A stretch of 56,424 nucleotides of DNA, from positions 1 through 56,424 of the forward strand of contig CALHAG010000005.1 in the NCBI GenBank assembly GCA_937934305.1. The letters are read 5' to 3'. This document shows positions 6,006-44,881 of this stretch, in pieces. The DNA comes from Candidatus Caldarchaeum subterraneum. GTDB lineage: Archaea > Thermoproteota > Nitrososphaeria_A > Caldarchaeales > Caldarchaeaceae. The position numbers were made by a program, and so were the translations under genes. Each line of letters begins with the position of its first letter. Position 1 is the first letter of the stretch. The notes beneath the pieces were generated by a model. It did no database searches, was not told the DNA's origin, and saw only the letters and a list, made by a program, of their open reading frames with translations.

Positions 6006-8543
6006 TCACCCTATCTTGGGCTTAACCCTCGTGAGCGTCAGGCTGTTGAGTGTGACTGAGACACTGCTCAGAGCCATCAATAATGCGGCCAGTTCAGGGC
6101 TCACTATAAATCCTGTCGCTGGGTAGAGAGCGCCGGCAGCTATTGGGATAGCCGCGGCGTTGTATCCAAACGCCCAGAGAAGGTTCTGCTTAATCTTCTG
6201 CATCGTCTTCCTGCTCAAGTGTATTGCGTTAACGACGTCGAGGAGGTCGTCTTTGACGAGGACGATTTTGCCCGCCTCCATCGCTATGTCCGTGCCGCTT
6301 CCCAACGCTATTCCAACATCTGCCTGAGTAAGCGCCGGTGCGTCGTTTATGCCGTCTCCAACGAAGCCTACTCTTTTACCCTCCTGCTGAAGCTTCTTCA
6401 CCTCCTCCGCCTTTTCGCCGGGAAGCACCTCCGCCAAGACACGTGTTATCCCCAGCTGCCTCGCTATCGCACGCGCGGTCCGCTCGTTGTCTCCCGTGAG
6501 CATGGCGACCTCCACACCCATGTCCCGGAGAGCTTTCACAGCCTCAGCCGAGTTCTCCTTCAACGTATCAGCAACGGCCACGAGCCCAAGCGGGGCACCG
6601 TCGTAGGCAACTATCATCACCGTTTTACCCTCATCCTCCAGCACCCGTATACTCTCCTCAAGCTCAGCAAAATCCACACCATACCTCTCCATCAGCTTCC
6701 TATTACCCACCAGTATCGTTTTTCCACCATAGGTTGCTCGGACACCATGTCCCGGGATTGCCTCAAAGTCCTCCGGCTCCGGTATCTCGAGACCAAGCAT
6801 CTTCGCATGCTCCACTATTGCCTGTGCCAGCGGGTGCTCTGAACGTGTCTCCGCTATAGCCGCTATCAGCAGCAGGTCCCGCTCATCCTCGATTGGACGC
6901 GGGTTGGCAAACATCTTGATAACAGGCTTCTGCAAAACCAAGTCTGTGACCGAGGGCTTACCCCTTGTAAGCGTCCCAGTCTTATCAAAAATTATCACGT
7001 CAAGCTTGTGGCATATCTCCAAGGCGGCTCCATCGCGTATGAGTATGCCGTTCTCCGCCGCTTTCCCTGTACCCACCATTACAGCCGCTGGTGTGGCGAT
7101 GCCTACGGCGCATGGACATGCTATGACGAGTATTGATGTTGCTATGATGAGTGCGAATATTCCCGCTGTCGTGTCTGGGGCCACGATTCTCCAGAACCCG
7201 GCCCACATCTCACCGCCGCGTGGAACAAAGTAGAGCTGGTAGCCTGCGAAGAACCAGAAGGCGAAGGCAAGCATCGAGATTATGAGTGAGGCTGTTATGA
7301 AGTGGCCTGCAACCCAGTCGGCCAGCCTCTGTATAGGGAGCTTTGTCTGCTGCGCCTCCTCCACCAGCCTAACTATCTGGGCCAGTGCCGTGTCTTTCCC
7401 AACCTTCGTAGCCCTAACCTTCAGGAACCCCGTCTTATTCACAGTAGCACCTATAACCTCATCCCCAACCTTCTTCTCAACTGGGATGCTTTCGCCGGTG
7501 ATCATGGACTGGTCGACAGAGGAGTAGCCCTCTATCACCACACCATCTACAGGGATTTTCTCCCCAGGTCTCACGAGGACTGTATCCCCTATCTGAACCT
7601 CGTCCGCAGGTATCTCTTTCTCCTCGCCGTCCCTTATAACCCGAGCCGTCAAGGGCTTAAGCTCCATCAACCTTCTAACGGCCTCTGATGTCCTCCCTCT
7701 CGCAACTGTCTCCATCAACCTGCCCAGCACTATGAACGCTACAAGGAGGGCGACTTCCTTGAACCATGTTGGGAGACCTGGTGCGAGCGGGTAGAAGGCG
7801 TGAACAGAGCTGAATATGTATGCGGAGCCTATTCCGACGGCGTAGAGAAGGTTCATGTCAGCTGCGCCATGCATGAGGCTGCGGGCTGACCTTATGAAGA
7901 ACTGTCTCGCCGGACCAAAGACAGCTATCGACGTAAGTATGAAGAGGAACAACTGGCTCCCGAGAAACTCGGGAAAAGGTATGTATGGGACGAGGTGCTT
8001 GCTGAACTCTCCCAAAACTGCCATCGCCGCTATTGGCGCCGCTATTGCGAGGTTAATCATCTGGCCCCGTATCTCGCGCCGCCTCTCCTGCTTCTCCCTC
8101 TCCGCCGCCGTCTCCGCTGAAACCTCCTCCCCCGCATCGTAGCCAACGCTCTTAACAGCTTTGATGAGAGCCTGCTTGCTTGTGCCAGGTAACGCATTTA
8201 CAACAGCCCTTGCAGTCATAAGGTTAACTGAGACATCTACAACACCCTCGACCTCCTTCAAAGCGTTCTCAACGGTTTGAACACATGAAGCACAGTGCAT
8301 ACCGCGCACACTCAGCACTATCTGGTCCTTGAGAACCCTATACCCAATATCGTTGATCGCCCTCTCCATATCGGCCAAGCTCACACGCGTCGGGTCATAC
8401 TCAACAGAAGCACGCGAGGCAGCAAAGTTAACGCTCACGCTATGCACACCGTCGAGGCTTTTGAGCATGCTCTCTACACTCTGTGCACAAGAGGCGCAGT
8501 GCATGCCACCAATCTGGAGAACAACCCTGCGACGCTCAGCCAA
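6006..8543 (-). CDS. copA: Copper-exporting P1B-type ATPase CopA
   Basis: This 845-residue pump drives Cu(I) out of the cytoplasm. It carries two N-terminal heavy-metal domains, each with GMHCASC (near residues 13-19 and about 86), then eight predicted TM helices, the membrane CPC motif (VIACPCAVG), the phosphorylation site DKTGTLTRG, the HP motif SEHPLAQAI and [13 protein letters not shown] plus the C-terminal [15 protein letters not shown] helix is the signature of the Cu+ subgroup. It lies between a YHS protein upstream and a 2-TM protein plus TRASH regulator downstream. Length and motifs are complete. Confidence 0.96.
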
Positions 8544-10153: not shown

Positions 10154-13100
10154 TCACCAGACCACGCGATGTGGCTGGATTCCTCGGACGCGGCCTGTTT
10201 TCACGACTTTGACAGGGTTGCTGTAGTATGATTGTCCAGAGCCGAGCCACGATAACATGGGCCAGTTGTCGAGGGACGGGTCGCCTAACTCAACCGGGTT
10301 GGGTGAGACACCGTTGAACCGCCACTCGTCCACCGCGAGACCTTTCTCAAAGTATTCAGCGGGCCTGTGAGTGAAAAGTATCTTTTTAGCGATAGGTGGT
10401 AGGTGTTTTACGGGGTTGACGGCTGTCTCCGGTATCTCCACTTTATCGGGAAGGGTTGCAGCAATTTCCCCGCCGTTTTTGAGAGTGAAGTAACTGGGTT
10501 TAACGACCAAGGTTTCAGCCCATCTTCCCATTCCATAAGGCACTGCGACCACACCCTTAGCAATTGAGGCGGTGACAACCACCGGGGCTTCAATACTTCC
10601 CTCCGGGCTCTCAACCAATACAACATCGCCTGTCTTCACTCCAAGCATAGCCACGTCCGCCCTGTTGACCAGAACAAAGTTCTCGGGAAGAATCGATTTA
10701 ATCCAGTAGTAGTTGCCGCTTCGATGCTTCGTGTAAAGCGGGCCTGATTCGAAGACGAGTTTCAGCGGATACTGCGACTGTGGGTAAAGCTCTTCAAGAG
10801 GTGTTCCGGCGAAGCTTAGCGACTTTAATCCTCCGACCGGGGCGTAGGTGGCCGGCTCCACGTATGCAGGGCCTCCCCAAAACTTCTTTCCCGTGATGCT
10901 GTTACGTGTTTTCGCCAGCTTCTCATTCCACAGCAACAGAACACCTGTACCGGGCACGCTTCTCTTCGAGAAGCCTTTTTCGTTGAAAGAGTCCTCGTAT
11001 CTTGTGAAGACACCGCCTCTGGCCAGGCAATAGGCCGCTGCCTGCCACTCGTCCTCTGGGAGAATGTCCTTGAACTTGGCTATTGGATAGTTTTGCTCGA
11101 CGAACCTAACATCTTCGACGGGAATCTCCTTGGGGAGGATTCCTCTGTCTTTGGCGCTTGTTCCGCCGTTTGCGAAGACTCGTAGAATGTAGTCCCAGAA
11201 GCTGTGAAGCGGGAACCATTTTCCGTCATATTTTTTATCCTTGACCCCTGGGATGCCTTTTTCCCCGAACCCGGGTGCTTTTAGTGCTTTGCCAACGTCG
11301 ATGAAGAACTCCCACATAGATGCGTAACGCGGTTTGCCGTCGGGTGAATCGTTTATCCTCTGTGTAAGAGGCATGATTGCCGGCGACCTCCATGCCTCGG
11401 CTATGTACCTGCCCATGCCTCCGCTGTAGAGAAACTGGACACCGTTTGTACCTGTCTCGAGGTATGTTGTGTCTGGGACAAGGTAGTCGGCGTAGAGATA
11501 GGTCTCGTTGATGGTGGTTGTTATGCCGATGAAGAGAGGCAGCTTCTTGGTGTCGCGTAGCACTTCCGCGAACTTCAGTCCTTTGTTCGCCGAGAGCACT
11601 GGGTTGGCGAAGTAGAGTATGAGAGCCATGATTGGGTAGGGGTATGCAAGGTCTATTCCTGCGAAGAGCTCTGTGTAGCTCTCCTCGGGGCTGAACGGAT
11701 ACCACGGCCTCTTAGCCGGATACGGGTTCTCATCCGACTTCACCTTTCTGTAATACATTATGGTTTTTTCGTACTCGGCTCTGTGTCTATCGATTGGCGG
11801 CCCCCAGCTTATCGGCTCGCCGAAACCGCTTGCCGACAAGTTGTAGAGATAGCTGTTGTATGAAGTGAGGGATGGCCGTGCCAGCAGCCCACCCATCCTG
11901 TGGAAGTTTCCCACTAGGATGTCGAGGCTCCTAATGGCCCAGACGGTGTATTCTCCGTTTGGATGCTGGGCAACCCCCCTGTGGATGTAGGTAGCCGCCC
12001 GTGGGGCAGCCTCCCCAAAATCCCTCGCCATCTCCTGTATAGTCTGAACAGGTATCCCGCATATGCGCGACCATTCCTCAACTGTTTTGCTGAAGACTGT
12101 CTCCTTGAACACGGTGAATACTGTTTTGACCGTTACCTCCTCGCCTGAGGCGAGTTTGACCTTTCCAGTGAACTCGAGGTCGGCCCTGTCAACAGAGTCA
12201 TATGGGATAATCTCTTCACCGGCTTTGACAAGTGGTTTGTTGTCGCCGCCGATGCCGAGCATCGTGTCTGTAAGATGTGAGCCGTAAAGGCTGTGGTTCT
12301 CCTCCATGACCACGAGCCATGTGGCGTTGCTGTGGTAGGGGTAGCCGAGCTTCTCGGCGGCTTTCTTAGACGGAGCCTCGAGGAACGCCATGTTTATCCA
12401 CCCGTTCTTTATCAGGAGCTGAGCTACCGCAAGGGCCCATGCGGCGTCCGTTCCAGGTTTAACAGGCACCCAGACGATGTTTTTCCGGGCCGCTGTTCTA
12501 GGGGCCAGGGGGTTGATGTAGTATATCTTTAATCCGTTTTCCGCGGCTTTCTCGATGAGGGCTCCCTGCCCTGTCGCACCTGGGTGAATCCTGCCCATGG
12601 CTGCGCCTGCCATGAAAATAACTTTCGAACCCATGAAGTCGGGGTTGATGTCATAGTAACCTGACCATAGGTAGTTTCCGGTGTAGAATGCGAGCTGACA
12701 CGCTGATGTGTGTCTCATCCAGTTAACGCTACCAAAAGCTTTGATGAACCTGTTTGTGAAGGTGTCGGCGTTGTCCTGTCCACGGCCTCTCATGTATACA
12801 AGCATGTTGGCTTTTGTTCCGAGGTCGGGGTTTTCGGGGTCGATCAGCACATCCTCCAGCCTAAGCCCCTTCTCACCCAAAATCTTGCTCCATTTCTCCT
12901 TGAAGCTTGTGAGAAGCGCCTCAAACTCTTCCTTTGTTACTTTTTTGTCGGCAGCCTTTGCCACGAGCTCGTCCACATCTTTCTTAAGAGAAGATAGTAT
13001 ATCGGATGGGTTATCGAACCCTGCGTCCCGGAGAAGGCCGTAGACAAATATCTGCCGAATCCCTGGCAGCCTCTCACCCGTCTCTTCGATAACTCCTCCG

Positions 13101-41524: not shown

Positions 41525-41584
41525 CCCCGCTACCCAAATACTACGCTAAACAAAGTAAAATAAACATTGCTAAAGCCAGAGCGG

Positions 41585-42033
41585 ATTGTGTCCGGATAAG
41601 CAACTCTACCCGTCTCCACTCCTCATCGCATGGTCGCATATCGTGAATAGTTTTTTATTCCTTGTTGATTTTTTGCGCTTAGTTTGTTGGGGAATACCGT
41701 GGTTCTCTCTTTTGGGTATCTGAAGAGTCTCTCGACTCTATTCCTCATGCCGACTCTCTGGTGCTCGTATTCTAACCCTAGCCTCTCTAGTGCCCATCTA
41801 TACCAAGGACCACTGTCAACTATTACCTTATGCTTGTTCAGGCACTTCTTTAGGGTCTTCAGGAAAAGTAGGGCGTTTAGGTTAGCCCCTACCATGGGCG
41901 GCCTCTATAGTCAGTAGTTCTTCCGAATCCACATCGACTGCAGAGCAGACGTAAACCACTATCTTCGTCACCTGTCTCATCAACAGCTATACACTTTCTA
42001 CATTTTGGCTCAGAGGCTATAGCCGGACACTAT
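41585..42033. mobile_element. Decayed insertion sequence with imperfect terminal inverted repeats
   Basis: The left end reads ATTGTGTCCGGATA (41585-41598), and the inverted right end (42020-42033) reads ATAGTGTCCGGCTA, 12 of 14 identical and pointing inward. Between them lies the transposase remnant at 41623-42013. At 449 bp the element is shorter than intact IS6-type elements, consistent with deletion. No clear target duplication was seen. Confidence 0.6.
41623..42013 (-). pseudogene. Transposase remnant (DDE, IS6-like) with frameshifts
   Basis: Reading on the minus strand, pieces of one protein occur in different frames: KCRKCIAVDETGDE, then IVVYVCSAVDVDSEELLTIE, then ALLFLKTLKKCLNKHKVIVD and SGPWYRWALERLGLEYEHQR. 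AVDET, AVDVD and VIVDSGPWYRW correspond to the DDE core of archaeal IS6-like transposases. At least two frameshifts separate the pieces, one close to 41900, so it cannot make an active enzyme. Confidence 0.7.
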
Positions 42034-42240
42034 GCTGGCGGAACATCAAAATGTGAAAAAGGAAAGAAGGAGGGGTTGTATGCGCCATCTTCATCTCCTA
42101 CGCCTTCGCCCAAGACTTTCCCCGCGGAACGCCCGACTGTCTTCCGCCCGCATGTCATCACCCTCTGGGGTATGGGGTTGACGCCGCAGGCGCCGGCTGG
42201 TTTCTGTCACCCTTCATAGGAAAAGGTTCATTAGGAGCCC
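42034..42240. other. Structured noncoding stretch downstream of the TnpB fragment
   Basis: These 207 bp have no recognised gene. Several short stems are visible: AAGAC/GTCTT around TTCC-CCGC-GGAA near 42111-42142, and CGCC-GCA-GGCG near 42181-42195. Because it lies 3' of the minus-strand tnpB, a right-end guide RNA (reRNA) is conceivable, but no conserved end motif was identified. Confidence 0.3.
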
Positions 42241-43122
42241 TCACCCAAGATACCCCCGGCCTGGGACTGCCGGAGGGGTCTTGGGAAGGACTTCCTCCCC
42301 TTTTTCCCCTCCGAGTGGCAGACCCTGACACTGGGGGTCTTGGGTGGAGGCTTTCTCGACTGCTGTTGTCAGGTTGTCTAATGCCTGTTTGTATTTTCTG
42401 AGTTCTTTTCCGAGGTGGGTGTCGAGTAGGTGGAAACCGTATAATAGTAGTGCTGTTCTCGCCAGATTTTTTACCGCTACATGGTCTCTGTCATCTCGGT
42501 GTCCGCATTCTTCGCACTTCAGTCTCTCCCATTTGCCTTTCTCATGCTTCATCAGTTTGTTGCATTTTGGGCATAGGCTGCTGGTGTAGTGGGGAGGCAC
42601 TGTTACTAGCTTCCCCATCTTTTCGCATGCTGTTGACAGTCGTCGTATAAGCTTGGCTATGGGCCAGCTGCTGATGATATGCGACTTTTCAGGGTCTTTT
42701 GCTTTTAGCCGCTGCTTTAGCTGACCGGCGTTGAGCCGCTCCAGAACCACTGCCTGTGTATTCGATGCAAGCCTCTTCACTAAACCGGCTGACTTGTTTA
42801 CCCAGTCGTTGTCCAAGTTTCTAGCATATCTCAGCCACGCATATGCTGGTCTTCCATGGATCTTTAGAGACCGCCTGTTAACCCTTCTGACAAACAATAG
42901 CTTGCCGACGTTGCGTGAGACACGTCTATAACCCTTGAAGCGGATCAGCAGCCCAACCTCAACCTCCGCAACTATGATGTCTCTGACGTTTACGTCCACC
43001 ACGACCATTTTTATGGACCCCCGCAGCGCATAGCTCCGAAGCAGATCTGGAACATGTCCTCTCGCCCCGGCCCCCAACCCCGAAGAGCCGGAGCCGCCAA
43101 AGCGTTCTCCAGTCCCTCCCAT
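42241..43122 (-). CDS. tnpB: TnpB (IS200/IS605 OrfB) C-terminal part, N-terminally truncated
   Basis: The 293-residue frame keeps the RuvC-like core: Asp in VVVDVNVRDIIVAEV, Glu in AVVLERLNAGQLKQ, the zinc finger CPKC...CEEC, and Asp in DDRDHVAVKNLA. Full TnpB is near 400 residues and has a further N-terminal REC/WED region, which is missing. The first 38 residues are Gly-rich and unlike TnpB, so translation may begin at the ATG at 43008. A stop codon lies in frame just upstream of 43122. No tnpA is nearby. Whether it still cuts DNA is doubtful without its N terminus. Confidence 0.75.
   Translation of the reverse strand: MGGTGERFGGSGSSGLGAGARGHVPDLLRSYALRGSIKMVVVDVNVRDIIVAEVEVGLLIRFKGYRRVSRNVGKLLFVRRVNRRSLKIHGRPAYAWLRYARNLDNDWVNKSAGLVKRLASNTQAVVLERLNAGQLKQRLKAKDPEKSHIISSWPIAKLIRRLSTACEKMGKLVTVPPHYTSSLCPKCNKLMKHEKGKWERLKCEECGHRDDRDHVAVKNLARTALLLYGFHLLDTHLGKELRKYKQALDNLTTAVEKASTQDPQCQGLPLGGEKGEEVLPKTPPAVPGRGYLG
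42244..42285. repeat. Long imperfect hairpin at the tnpB 3' end
   Basis: The arms 42244-42260 and 42269-42285 are inverted with 14 of 17 positions matched and an 8-nt loop. They overlap the last codons of the TnpB frame. A second hairpin AGACCC-x-GGGTCT lies at about 42319-42340, and GGGGTCTTGGG occurs in both. Such subterminal hairpins are typical of IS200/IS605 ends. Confidence 0.6.
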
Positions 43123-43136
43123 AGCTCTCCCCCCTC

Positions 43137-43203
43137 ATCCCTAGACCCGGAGGCTGTGACCCCAGGCCTTTGGGATGAGACCTGGGGGCTTGGGTCTAGG
43201 GAT
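43137..43203. repeat. Nested inverted repeat upstream of the TnpB fragment
   Basis: ATCCCTAGACCC (43137-43148) is perfectly inverted at 43192-43203, and inside it CCCCAGG (43160-43166) pairs with CCTGGGG (43181-43187). With the hairpin at 42244-42285 it brackets the TnpB fragment and may mark the left end of the element. Confidence 0.7.
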
Positions 43204-43243
43204 CATTAAGCACGCTAACTGCCGCCGAATGTCTAATATCTGC

Positions 43244-43314
43244 GTAGGGTCGACAACCCTACTTTCTGCGGGCAGCCGACTACCGCCCTTTTAATGGCCA
43301 GGCGACTACCGGCC
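43244..43314. repeat. Three tandem covarying hairpins, 26-nt period
   Basis: Units start at 43244, 43270 and 43296. Each is 19 nt, followed by a 7-nt linker. Positions 1-4 pair with 16-19 in every unit but with different bases: GTAG/CTAC, GGGC/GCCC, GGCC/GGCC. The 11-nt centres are similar: GGTCGACAACC, AGCCGACTACC, AGGCGACTACC, consensus RGNCGACWACC. Unit 1 extends its stem to 7 bp. Stem covariation with a fixed loop points to selection on structure. A fourth hairpin with a different loop (GCCC-x9-GGGC, 43320-43336) follows. Confidence 0.75.
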
Positions 43315-43380
43315 CTATAGCCCAGCTAGGCGGGGCTTTCCACTCCTTCTCCTTACCTAGCCGTATTCAACTACTTTAAC

Positions 43381-43454
43381 CCGATATAATAACTTAACCT
43401 CCCACTTTCAGATACCTCTTAACTTATTTGAGGCTACCTACTATTCATTGTAGC
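43381..43454 (+). promoter_or_regulatory. Promoter and leader hairpin of the unknown 422-aa gene
   Basis: GATATAATAA at 43383-43392 is a TATA candidate with transcription expected near 43412-43418. GCTAC (43433-43437) and GTAGC (43450-43454) form a 5-bp hairpin with a 12-nt loop that ends exactly before the ATG at 43455; it could hinder or time initiation. Confidence 0.4.
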
Positions 43455-44723
43455 ATGCTCCTTAGACGGGTCTCCTTAGATAAGAAGAGACTCCAGGTCA
43501 GCATCTCAGGCAAAGTTTTCAATGTGTGGGGTAGCGAGGATGAGGGTTATGTCCTGAAAGGTGGTCCAAACCTGCTTGAGCATGTGAGGGGTATTAGGCT
43601 GTCTGACCTTCCTGAGCATTTGGCGGTAGAGATTGGTCCCAGGTTATCGGAGAAGTTTGGACTACAAAGAAGATTGAATTTCTCAGCAAGTCGGAAGGCT
43701 TTCAAAGTATCTTATCTGGTAACTGCTTCACGGGAAACTCTGATAGATGTTGAAGAGTATGCATCAGAGATTGCCCGCAAGGCTGAGGAACATGGATTCA
43801 GTTGCCAAACCAGCAAGACGGAAGAAGAGATCCACATTGAGGCTAGTTACCGGGAGGGCGGAGGAGAGGAGATAGGGTATATTGTTAAGCTTTTCGAGGA
43901 TGCATTAGCGTCTGCAGACAGGTCGATTGAGCAGAAAGAGGAGAATATGCGTCAAAAGCTGGAGTACTGGATAGGGAAGGTGGGACGGCTTGATGGCCGC
44001 TTCCTCTCAAAACTGAACGGTTTGGAGGGCGTGGCTAAATGGATTATCCACCCGCTCACCAGTAAAGAGATAGCGTACATACTCTTCGGCATCAAGCCTG
44101 AATCGTTTAATCTGGGAGCCAAGCTGTCTTACGCGTTACTTCAAAGATTCGAGGTCTGGGATGGCGAGACAATAGATAGGCTTAAGGCCTTAGGCATAAT
44201 AGCATACATGGAAGATAATTCGAGGCTCTTCTGCACGTTCACAGGATGGCGAGTCAAAAAGCTCCTCGAACAAATGATCTTCTTGGAACCTAAAAGCTTC
44301 ACCTCATCCACAGCCGGAGGCTACGACCCAATCTCCCTCCTCCACTATATCGGGAGGAACTTCCCATCACTGGCAATATCCAAAAGCAGGAGATTCAGAG
44401 GAAACAAAAGCGGAGCATTCAGATACGCCGAAAAAATGCTTAAACAGCTAACCTTCACACACATAGCAGCCCTAGCCGGAATCTATTGGCGGCTTCACAT
44501 ACCCAAGCAGGTATTAGAGGAAACCCTCAGCCAGCTGATCAGCCTAGGCTTCATAAGCCACAACAGAAAAATCAAACCCTTCGCCAAATGGATAATAAGC
44601 CTGATAAACGGCTACATCAGAAAAACCAAACTAGCCCCAAACCAAAAACAAGCCCAGACAACACTATTCAACTGGAACTGCCTACAAGAAACATTCATAA
44701 AACAAATATCTAAAAAGCAGTAA
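43455..44723 (+). CDS. Unrecognised 422-residue protein in the accessory zone
   Basis: The product starts MLLRRVSLDKKRLQVSISG. I recognise no family. The N-terminal half is mixed alpha/beta with a charged coiled stretch (ADRSIEQKEENMRQKLEYW, about residue 160). The C-terminal half is helical and basic with likely winged-helix character (HIPKQVLEETLSQLISLGFI) and ends in a Lys/Gln-rich tail. A TTG at 43428 would add nine residues. Codon use near the 3' end is A-rich, unlike housekeeping neighbours, which fits recent transfer. It lies between the hairpin array and tRNA-Tyr. A nucleic-acid-binding role is a guess. Confidence 0.7.
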   Translation: MLLRRVSLDKKRLQVSISGKVFNVWGSEDEGYVLKGGPNLLEHVRGIRLSDLPEHLAVEIGPRLSEKFGLQRRLNFSASRKAFKVSYLVTASRETLIDVEEYASEIARKAEEHGFSCQTSKTEEEIHIEASYREGGGEEIGYIVKLFEDALASADRSIEQKEENMRQKLEYWIGKVGRLDGRFLSKLNGLEGVAKWIIHPLTSKEIAYILFGIKPESFNLGAKLSYALLQRFEVWDGETIDRLKALGIIAYMEDNSRLFCTFTGWRVKKLLEQMIFLEPKSFTSSTAGGYDPISLLHYIGRNFPSLAISKSRRFRGNKSGAFRYAEKMLKQLTFTHIAALAGIYWRLHIPKQVLEETLSQLISLGFISHNRKIKPFAKWIISLINGYIRKTKLAPNQKQAQTTLFNWNCLQETFIKQISKKQ

Positions 44724-44757: not shown

Positions 44758-44881
44758 TCCCGCGGGCAGGATTTGAACCTGCGACCACCCGGTTTCCATG
44801 TTGCCTGGCGGGCTGAACATCGGCTCAGCCACGGGGCTGACCGCTACAGCCGGGCGCTCTACCAGGCTGAGCTACCGCGGG
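44758..44881 (-). tRNA. tRNA-Tyr (GTA) with 50-nt intron
   Basis: On the minus strand the exons give acceptor CCCGCGG/CCGCGGG, D-stem GCTC/GAGC, anticodon stem CCCGG/CCGGG with loop start CTGTAG (anticodon GTA), and T-arm GCAGG-TTCAAAT-CCTGC. The intron at 44794-44843 sits after position 37, the canonical site, and holds the hairpin GGCTGA-x-TCAGCC. Removal needs the archaeal splicing endonuclease, and ligation the RtcB encoded at 308-3187. Confidence 0.93.

What the first reader, a model, noticed from the sequence alone, without database searches (positions are those of the whole stretch)
43455..44723. Unrecognised 422-aa protein between a structured RNA-like array and tRNA-Tyr
The protein matches no family I know, has a mixed N-terminal half, a basic helical C-terminal half with winged-helix character, and A-rich codons suggesting transfer. 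It is preceded by a hairpin ending exactly at its ATG and by the hairpin triplet. Protein plus repeated-hairpin RNA is a layout seen in type III toxin-antitoxin systems and guide-RNA nucleases, so this pair deserves attention as a possible new RNA-protein system.
Basis: inference. Interest (0 to 1): 0.75.

Follow-up and report, generated by a model that had tools for sequence, protein, structure and literature searches.

The report
Halved TnpB, partner protein, hairpin RNA
In a few archaea an unrecognised protein sits back to back with a cut-down relative of the RNA-guided DNA cutter TnpB and one to three folded hairpins, often beside a transfer-RNA gene, so the three parts look like one small RNA-protein system whose job is still untested.

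Summary
The protein (P, 43455-44723) is real and matches no known family above a curated cut-off. It is not a lone gene. In 5 of 5 loci where both genes were found, P is divergent from a TnpB-derived gene (window 42241-43122, minus) that keeps the RuvC triad and zinc finger but lacks the N-terminal WED/REC half ("TnpB-S"). The hairpin triplet is also real: 6-bp stems, 7-nt loops, 26-nt spacing. It recurs in those 5 loci (3, 3, 3, 1, 1 copies) and the stems covary strongly (65 of 66 cells paired). It probably belongs to the TnpB-S leader, not to P's mRNA. The one TnpB-S locus without P (G035) lacks such hairpins but keeps the conserved 3' region, so hairpins track P and the 3' RNA tracks TnpB-S. 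In 5 of 7 loci (a P remnant included) the 3' end of a tRNA gene faces the module. Whether it cuts, is guided, or moves is untested. The hairpin at P's ATG is not seen in homologues.

The parts
43455..44723 (+). P, 422-aa protein of no known family
   Evidence: open frame; relatives in 6 of 398 genomes of the phylum, one of them a remnant
42241..43122 (-). TnpB-S: TnpB-derived protein with RuvC and zinc finger only, 293 aa
   Evidence: PF07282 E 1.7e-13; guided_TnpB positions 264-388 of 389 only; D43, E128, D213 and C184, C187, C203, C206 invariant in 4 of 4
43244..43314 (-). array of three hairpins (43296-43314, 43270-43288, 43244-43262), 6-bp stems, 7-nt loops
   Evidence: strand inferred (65 of 66 cells pair in this sense, 63 of 66 in the other)
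43325..43364 (-). leader stem with purine-rich loop next to the array, similar in G004 and G038
   Evidence: the stem is my reading of the sequence
43383..43392 (.). TATA-like stretch that could serve both divergent promoters
   Evidence: inference, AT-rich region
42055..42330 (-). conserved, probably structured 3' end of the TnpB-S gene and its 3' UTR (candidate omega-RNA relative), ending in a polypyrimidine/T-run (42055-42083)
   Evidence: conserved in six loci; 45 consensus pairs, 19 with a compensatory change, but covariation term only -0.05
43139..43205 (.). further inverted repeat near the TnpB-S start, found also in G004 only
   Evidence: 43063-43199 is 74% identical to L009; alignment
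44758..44881 (-). intron-bearing tRNA gene (tRNA-Tyr by my reading) whose 3' end faces P
   Evidence: Rfam RF00005, 57.8 bits; aligned to G004, G005 and G038 counterparts

Best explanation
A two-protein, TnpB-derived ribonucleoprotein module with a patchy distribution, often at tRNA 3' ends. TnpB-S supplies the RuvC nuclease and binds the conserved 3' part of its own transcript, as TnpB binds omega-RNA. P binds the hairpin array in the leader of that transcript and, through winged-helix-like segments, supplies recognition that TnpB-S lost with its WED/REC half. Shown by sequence: the pairing of P with TnpB-S, intact catalytic residues, the missing N-terminal half, covarying hairpins that track P, a conserved 3' region that tracks TnpB-S, tRNA adjacency. 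Inferred: that the hairpins act as RNA, that P binds them, that the RNA joins the two proteins, that the complex cuts or nicks DNA, and that this keeps or moves the element.
For: P and TnpB-S are divergent neighbours in 5 of 5 loci that hold both. TnpB-S (E<=1e-30) is in 6 of 398 genomes, five of them P genomes. RuvC and zinc residues invariant in 4 of 4, while profile matches cover only the C-terminal half. Hairpin stems covary. G035 has TnpB-S and the 3' region but neither P (E<=0.01) nor a hairpin of the pattern in its 16-kb stretch. A tRNA 3' end faces the module in 5 of 7 loci.
Against: No test of binding or cutting. Hairpin-follows-P rests on one contrasting locus. The C-terminal half of P could not be modelled, so a recognition role is a guess. 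The 3' region ends in a T-run rather than in an obvious guide, and its covariation term is near zero. P diverges much faster than TnpB-S (20-38% against 54-56% identity), which also fits a loosely coupled regulator. Copies are broken in G018 and G005.
Confidence: 0.4

Rival explanations
1. P is a transcriptional regulator of the divergent pair: its winged helices bind the shared promoter (a CACTTTCAG-like stretch lies between the TATA-like box and P), and the array is a leader attenuator or a repeated DNA operator. TnpB-S works alone or is degenerate.
For: Divergent layout; a CACTTTC stretch stands upstream of P in the window, L009 and L012 (by eye).
Against: A DNA operator does not need compensatory stem changes, which are strong here. 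TnpB-S lost the half that lets TnpB work alone.
Confidence: 0.25
2. P is a new kind of transposase or recombinase of an element that targets tRNA 3' ends, with TnpB-S as its accessory nuclease.
For: The 3' end of a tRNA gene faces the module in 5 of 7 loci; G004 has about 5.3 kb after tRNA-Phe where its congener G007 has about 130 nt.
Against: No catalytic motif recognised in P; no repeated 12-mer marks the ends of the G004 stretch; that stretch holds other genes too; the hairpins lie inside, not at ends; P occurs once per genome in the hits, apart from split matches.
Confidence: 0.12
3. A decaying TnpB remnant beside an unrelated gene.
For: Copies are lost or broken in G002, G005 and G018.
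Against: The same truncation, intact catalytic residues and the same divergent partner recur at 54-56% TnpB-S identity across three families of the order.
Confidence: 0.07
4. A type III toxin-antitoxin: P a toxin, the hairpins its RNA antitoxin.
For: Repeated structured RNA beside a protein gene.
Against: No toxin-family match; units differ in stem sequence; the array lies upstream of P's TATA-like box; a TnpB-family gene is always present.
Confidence: 0.03

Closest known systems
TnpB / OMEGA RNA-guided nucleases (IS200/IS605, IS607), relatives of Cas12f
   Same: RuvC triad, zinc finger, conserved RNA-like region overlapping the 3' end of the gene.
   Different: WED/REC half missing; a divergent partner protein; a hairpin array in the leader; the 3' region ends in a T-run; no TnpA recognised.
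TldR, nuclease-dead TnpB-derived repressors (recalled)
   Same: TnpB-derived protein that has lost part of the original.
   Different: TldR keep recognition and lose the nuclease; here the nuclease residues stay and the recognition half is gone.
TIGR-Tas (PMC12045711, passages read)
   Same: Tandem RNA units, some stem-loop arrays, RuvC in TasR.
   Different: No Nop domain matched; here the loop is constant and the stems pair with themselves, with no spacers seen.
Type III toxin-antitoxin systems (recalled)
   Same: Repeated structured RNA beside a protein gene.
   Different: No toxin homology; units differ in stem sequence; probably the opposite transcript.
IStrons, group I intron plus TnpB (recalled)
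   Same: TnpB-type gene inside a transcript with structured ends.
   Different: No intron family matched by Rfam.

Membership tests
TnpB (OMEGA nuclease) | RuvC catalytic D-E-D and TNB zinc finger | tested here: met
   PF07282 in 4 of 4 scanned; residues invariant in 4 of 4
TnpB (OMEGA nuclease) | N-terminal WED/REC half in the same chain | tested here: not met
   profiles match only from about position 207 of 431 or 236 of 389; RuvC-I starts at residue 43; 332 nt between start codons in the window
TnpB (OMEGA nuclease) | omega-RNA overlapping the 3' end of the gene | tested here: inconclusive
   region conserved in six loci, 19 of 45 pairs with a compensatory change but covariation term -0.05; no Rfam family at E<=0.3
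TnpB (OMEGA nuclease) | guide taken from DNA flanking the element end | tested here: inconclusive
   polypyrimidine/T-run follows the conserved region in the loci aligned; no target search was run
TnpB (OMEGA nuclease) | element with a TnpA transposase | not tested
   no search for TnpA was made; none noticed among the neighbours that were scanned
Type III toxin-antitoxin | toxin of the ToxN, CptN or TenpN families | tested here: not met
   no Pfam, NCBIfam or PADLOC match for the window's P; homologues only weak unrelated hits
Type III toxin-antitoxin | near-identical antitoxin repeats in the toxin's transcript | tested here: not met
   stems differ between units; transcript assignment is inferred
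TIGR-Tas | Nop domain in the associated protein | tested here: not met
   no Nop family among Pfam hits of P and four homologues
[quoted passage not shown]
   units read by eye show constant loops and self-paired stems; no box search was run
IStron (group I intron plus TnpB) | group I intron RNA around the gene | tested here: not met
   no intron family in cmscan of the window and seven loci at gathering scores, nor of 41950-43460 at E<=5

The most novel reading that the evidence does not exclude
A split RNA-guided or RNA-scaffolded nuclease: P is a new, unrelated replacement for the recognition half of TnpB, supplied in trans and docked through a tandem array of hairpins spaced 24-26 nt apart in the nuclease's own transcript. 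That would be a separate evolutionary route from TnpB to a multi-subunit RuvC effector, living at tRNA genes.
Probability: 0.22. Interest if true: 0.9.

Novelty: new variant of a known kind. Interest (0 to 1): 0.68.

Why it matters
TnpB is the ancestor of Cas12, and in known TnpBs one chain both reads the guide and cuts. A lineage that keeps only the cutting half, together with the same unknown partner and covarying hairpins, would show how such an enzyme can be split into subunits, and the link between P and the hairpins is directly testable. It also gives a new covarying RNA element and a new archaeal protein family.

Tried and rejected
Type III toxin-antitoxin, TIGR-Tas and IStron readings: disfavoured on family matches and anatomy. 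Reading the same-genus genome G002 as an empty site: rejected, because it keeps 45 of the last 63 nt of P next to tRNA-Tyr, so it is a deletion. Structure search with the P model: nothing at Foldseek E<=0.001, best E 0.0063, best VIA Z 7.0 and none at 8 or more, so no relative can be named and no new fold is claimed. P's C-terminal half folded alone reached pLDDT 37.7 and was not searched. Profile of P against PDB sequences: one hit at E 0.96.

Weak hits of the homologues, all below curated cut-offs where there are any: DUF505 for the G018 fragment (E 0.0016), Pox_P4A (0.024) and MEDS (0.14) for G004, Ribosomal_L31e (0.097) for G014; MkoB (0.0085) for G014 and Specificity_I (0.015) for G038; phrog_7529 (0.0094) for G004 and phrog_12485 (0.047) for G038; NCBIfam PRK02090.1 (0.14) and T4SS_effec_BID (0.16) for G004 and G014. 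They disagree with each other and I give them no weight.

Long-range pairing of leader and 3' end. RNAduplex did not support it: own partners were not better than swapped ones; 832, 50, 110 and 884 of 1000 shuffles were as good for W, L011, L012 and L013; the L009 row failed because its anchor was not found. A local complementarity score favoured own partners (total 46, reached by 2 of 120 assignments, the true one included), but the shuffle control in that call was faulty, as the shuffled strand was not reverse-complemented. Corrected: the total was reached by 0 of 2000 mononucleotide and 11 of 2000 dinucleotide shuffles; per locus 207 (W), 52 (L009), 33 (L011), 1976 (L012) and 158 (L013) of 2000 dinucleotide shuffles. 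The leader stretches were chosen by eye, so this stays a lead.

No relative of P in the plasmid or phage collections; none confirmed for P or TnpB-S in viral contigs (these scans use a few peptide patterns). Genome contigs gave one hit, the HR01 remnant, whose contig length equals that of G005:C8. For the tRNA-Glu site of G014, five genomes matched the tRNA stretches only, and the P-side flank matched none of five: uninformative. TATA-like patterns upstream of the array were found in 4 of 5 loci, none in L013, at varied distances in AT-rich DNA: weak.

Full report
What is there. The 422-aa frame P is open from 43455 to 44723. The window's P has no match in Pfam or NCBIfam at E<=1 or in PADLOC at E<=0.1, and one weak PHROGs hit (E 0.064); weak hits of the homologues are listed under Tried and rejected. 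P relatives (E<=0.001) occur in 6 of 398 genomes of the phylum, all in the window's own order: G000 (the window), G004, G014, G018, G038 and G005. G005 is a remnant: 90% identical over residues 258-413 and broken before that. Identity to the window protein is 38, 25, 20 and 25% for G004, G038, G014 and the G018 fragment.

The partner gene. Window 42241-43122 (minus) is a TnpB-family gene (PF07282, E 1.7e-13). TnpB profiles align only with their C-terminal half: guided_TnpB positions 264-388 of 389 and IS607_TnpB 207-390 of 431 for the window's protein; solved TnpB and Cas12f chains match over the same part at E about 1e-5. D43, E128, D213 and four cysteines are invariant in 4 of 4 sequences. 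RuvC-I begins at residue 43, and 332 nt separate the start codons of the two genes, so a WED/REC half cannot be encoded there. TnpB-S (E<=1e-30) occurs in 6 of 398 genomes: the five non-remnant P genomes and G035. In these five loci the two genes are divergent. In G018 both are broken into more than one frame, so that copy looks decayed or badly assembled. In G000 this is the only TnpB-family match at E<=1e-10.

The hairpins. In TnpB-S sense the gap holds 6-bp stems with 7-nt loops of the form (U/C)(A/U)(G/A)UCGN, one loop reading UAGUAGA: three each in the window, G004 and G038, one in G014, and one with 5 of 6 pairs in G018. The triplets are spaced 24-26 nt. On the 11 hairpins 65 of 66 cells pair and 19 are changed on both sides (shuffled mean 5.9, 0 of 500 as high); sliding the partner by 1-3 columns drops pairing to 35-55%. 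The count of pairs with a change on both sides (4) is not above shuffles (199 of 500), since only six pairs exist. The pattern with 6 of 6 pairs occurs 17 times in 423,078 strand-bases of window and loci, 10 of them in these arrays (some loci overlap by homology). A covariance model of the triplet finds three places in 44 genomes of the order, which are the three sequences it was built from; it shows only that no further strong copy was found, and it misses the single hairpins of G014 and G018. Strand: 65 of 66 cells pair in TnpB-S sense and 63 of 66 in P sense, a slight lean. A TATA-like stretch at 43383-43392 lies between P and the array, so the array is more likely leader of TnpB-S than of P. 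That is inference without transcript data.

The 3' region. The last codons and 3' UTR of TnpB-S are conserved in six loci, G035 included. A (C/T)TAATGAACCTT stretch stands in 5 of 6; G038 reads TTAATGAGCTTT. RNAalifold gives 45 pairs, 19 with at least one compensatory change, but a covariation term of only -0.05: conserved, structure likely but not proven. A polypyrimidine/T-run follows in the aligned loci. Partial complementarity between that end and the leader is a lead only.

The contrast that matters. G035 has TnpB-S and the 3' region, but no P at E<=0.01 and no hairpin of the pattern in its 16-kb stretch. So hairpins track P, and the 3' region tracks TnpB-S. It is one locus.

Surroundings. 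The 3' end of a tRNA gene faces the module in 5 of 7 loci: tRNA-Tyr in the window, G005 and G038 (by alignment), tRNA-Phe in G004 and tRNA-Glu in G014. In G038 the P frame runs into the tRNA gene on the other strand. None was found near the module in G018 or G035. If a genome has 46 tRNA genes (assumed) in 1.56 Mb, a random place lies within 400 bp of one about 2.4% of the time. In G004 about 5.3 kb separate tRNA-Phe from the next shared stretch, against about 130 nt in its congener G007; this stretch also holds other, partly degenerate genes, and no repeated 12-mer marks its ends. G002, of the window's genus, has a deletion that leaves 45 of the last 63 nt of P.

P itself. The single-sequence model has block pLDDT of 53-89 over residues 11-170 (an alpha/beta domain) and fails beyond about 180. 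No solved structure stands out. Two winged-helix-like segments in the C-terminal half are my reading of the alignment.

Mechanism. I favour a TnpB-derived two-protein RNP: TnpB-S with its 3' RNA as nuclease part, P bound through the hairpins as recognition part (0.4). The main rival is P as regulator of the divergent promoters (0.25), then P as a recombinase (0.12).

Literature. Searches for TnpB with Caldarchaeum and with Aigarchaeota returned no paper. Four broader searches showed, in the titles and abstract starts listed, no RuvC-only TnpB with a partner protein; most subscription papers are not held, so this is no proof of novelty. PMC12045711 was seen in passages, PMC11061315 as outline and abstract. 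The residues that define RuvC, the WED/REC layout of TnpB, and the traits of TldR, IStrons and type III systems are recalled. That the order is Caldarchaeales is a guess from recall and the HR01 record title.

Noticed in passing
window 41584-41903: A stretch beyond the TnpB-S 3' end matches G018 (L013) on both sides of its P/TnpB-S pair (6744-7017, 10237-10337, 10394-10455); it looks like pieces of an insertion sequence (recalled, not tested).
   Followed up: no
L011 8647-8785: The tRNA-Tyr gene of G038 carries an extra insertion in the D-arm region besides the anticodon-loop intron, and the P frame overlaps its 3' end on the other strand.
   Followed up: no
L040 6337-7125: In G035 a 263-aa frame with a winged-helix-like start and apparent membrane segments lies convergent to TnpB-S; a link to P was not tested.
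   Followed up: no
window 43428-43470: A CACTTTC stretch lies downstream of the TATA-like box upstream of P in the window, L009 and L012 (by eye); possibly an operator. In the window it is near 43405.
   Followed up: no
L025 1-22: The G003 contig starts 22 bases from the 3' end of tRNA-Tyr, just where the element lies in the window; an assembly break at a repeat is possible.
   Followed up: no
window 43139-43205: A long inverted repeat beside the TnpB-S start is shared with G004 (43063-43199, 74% identity) but not seen in the other loci.
   Followed up: partly
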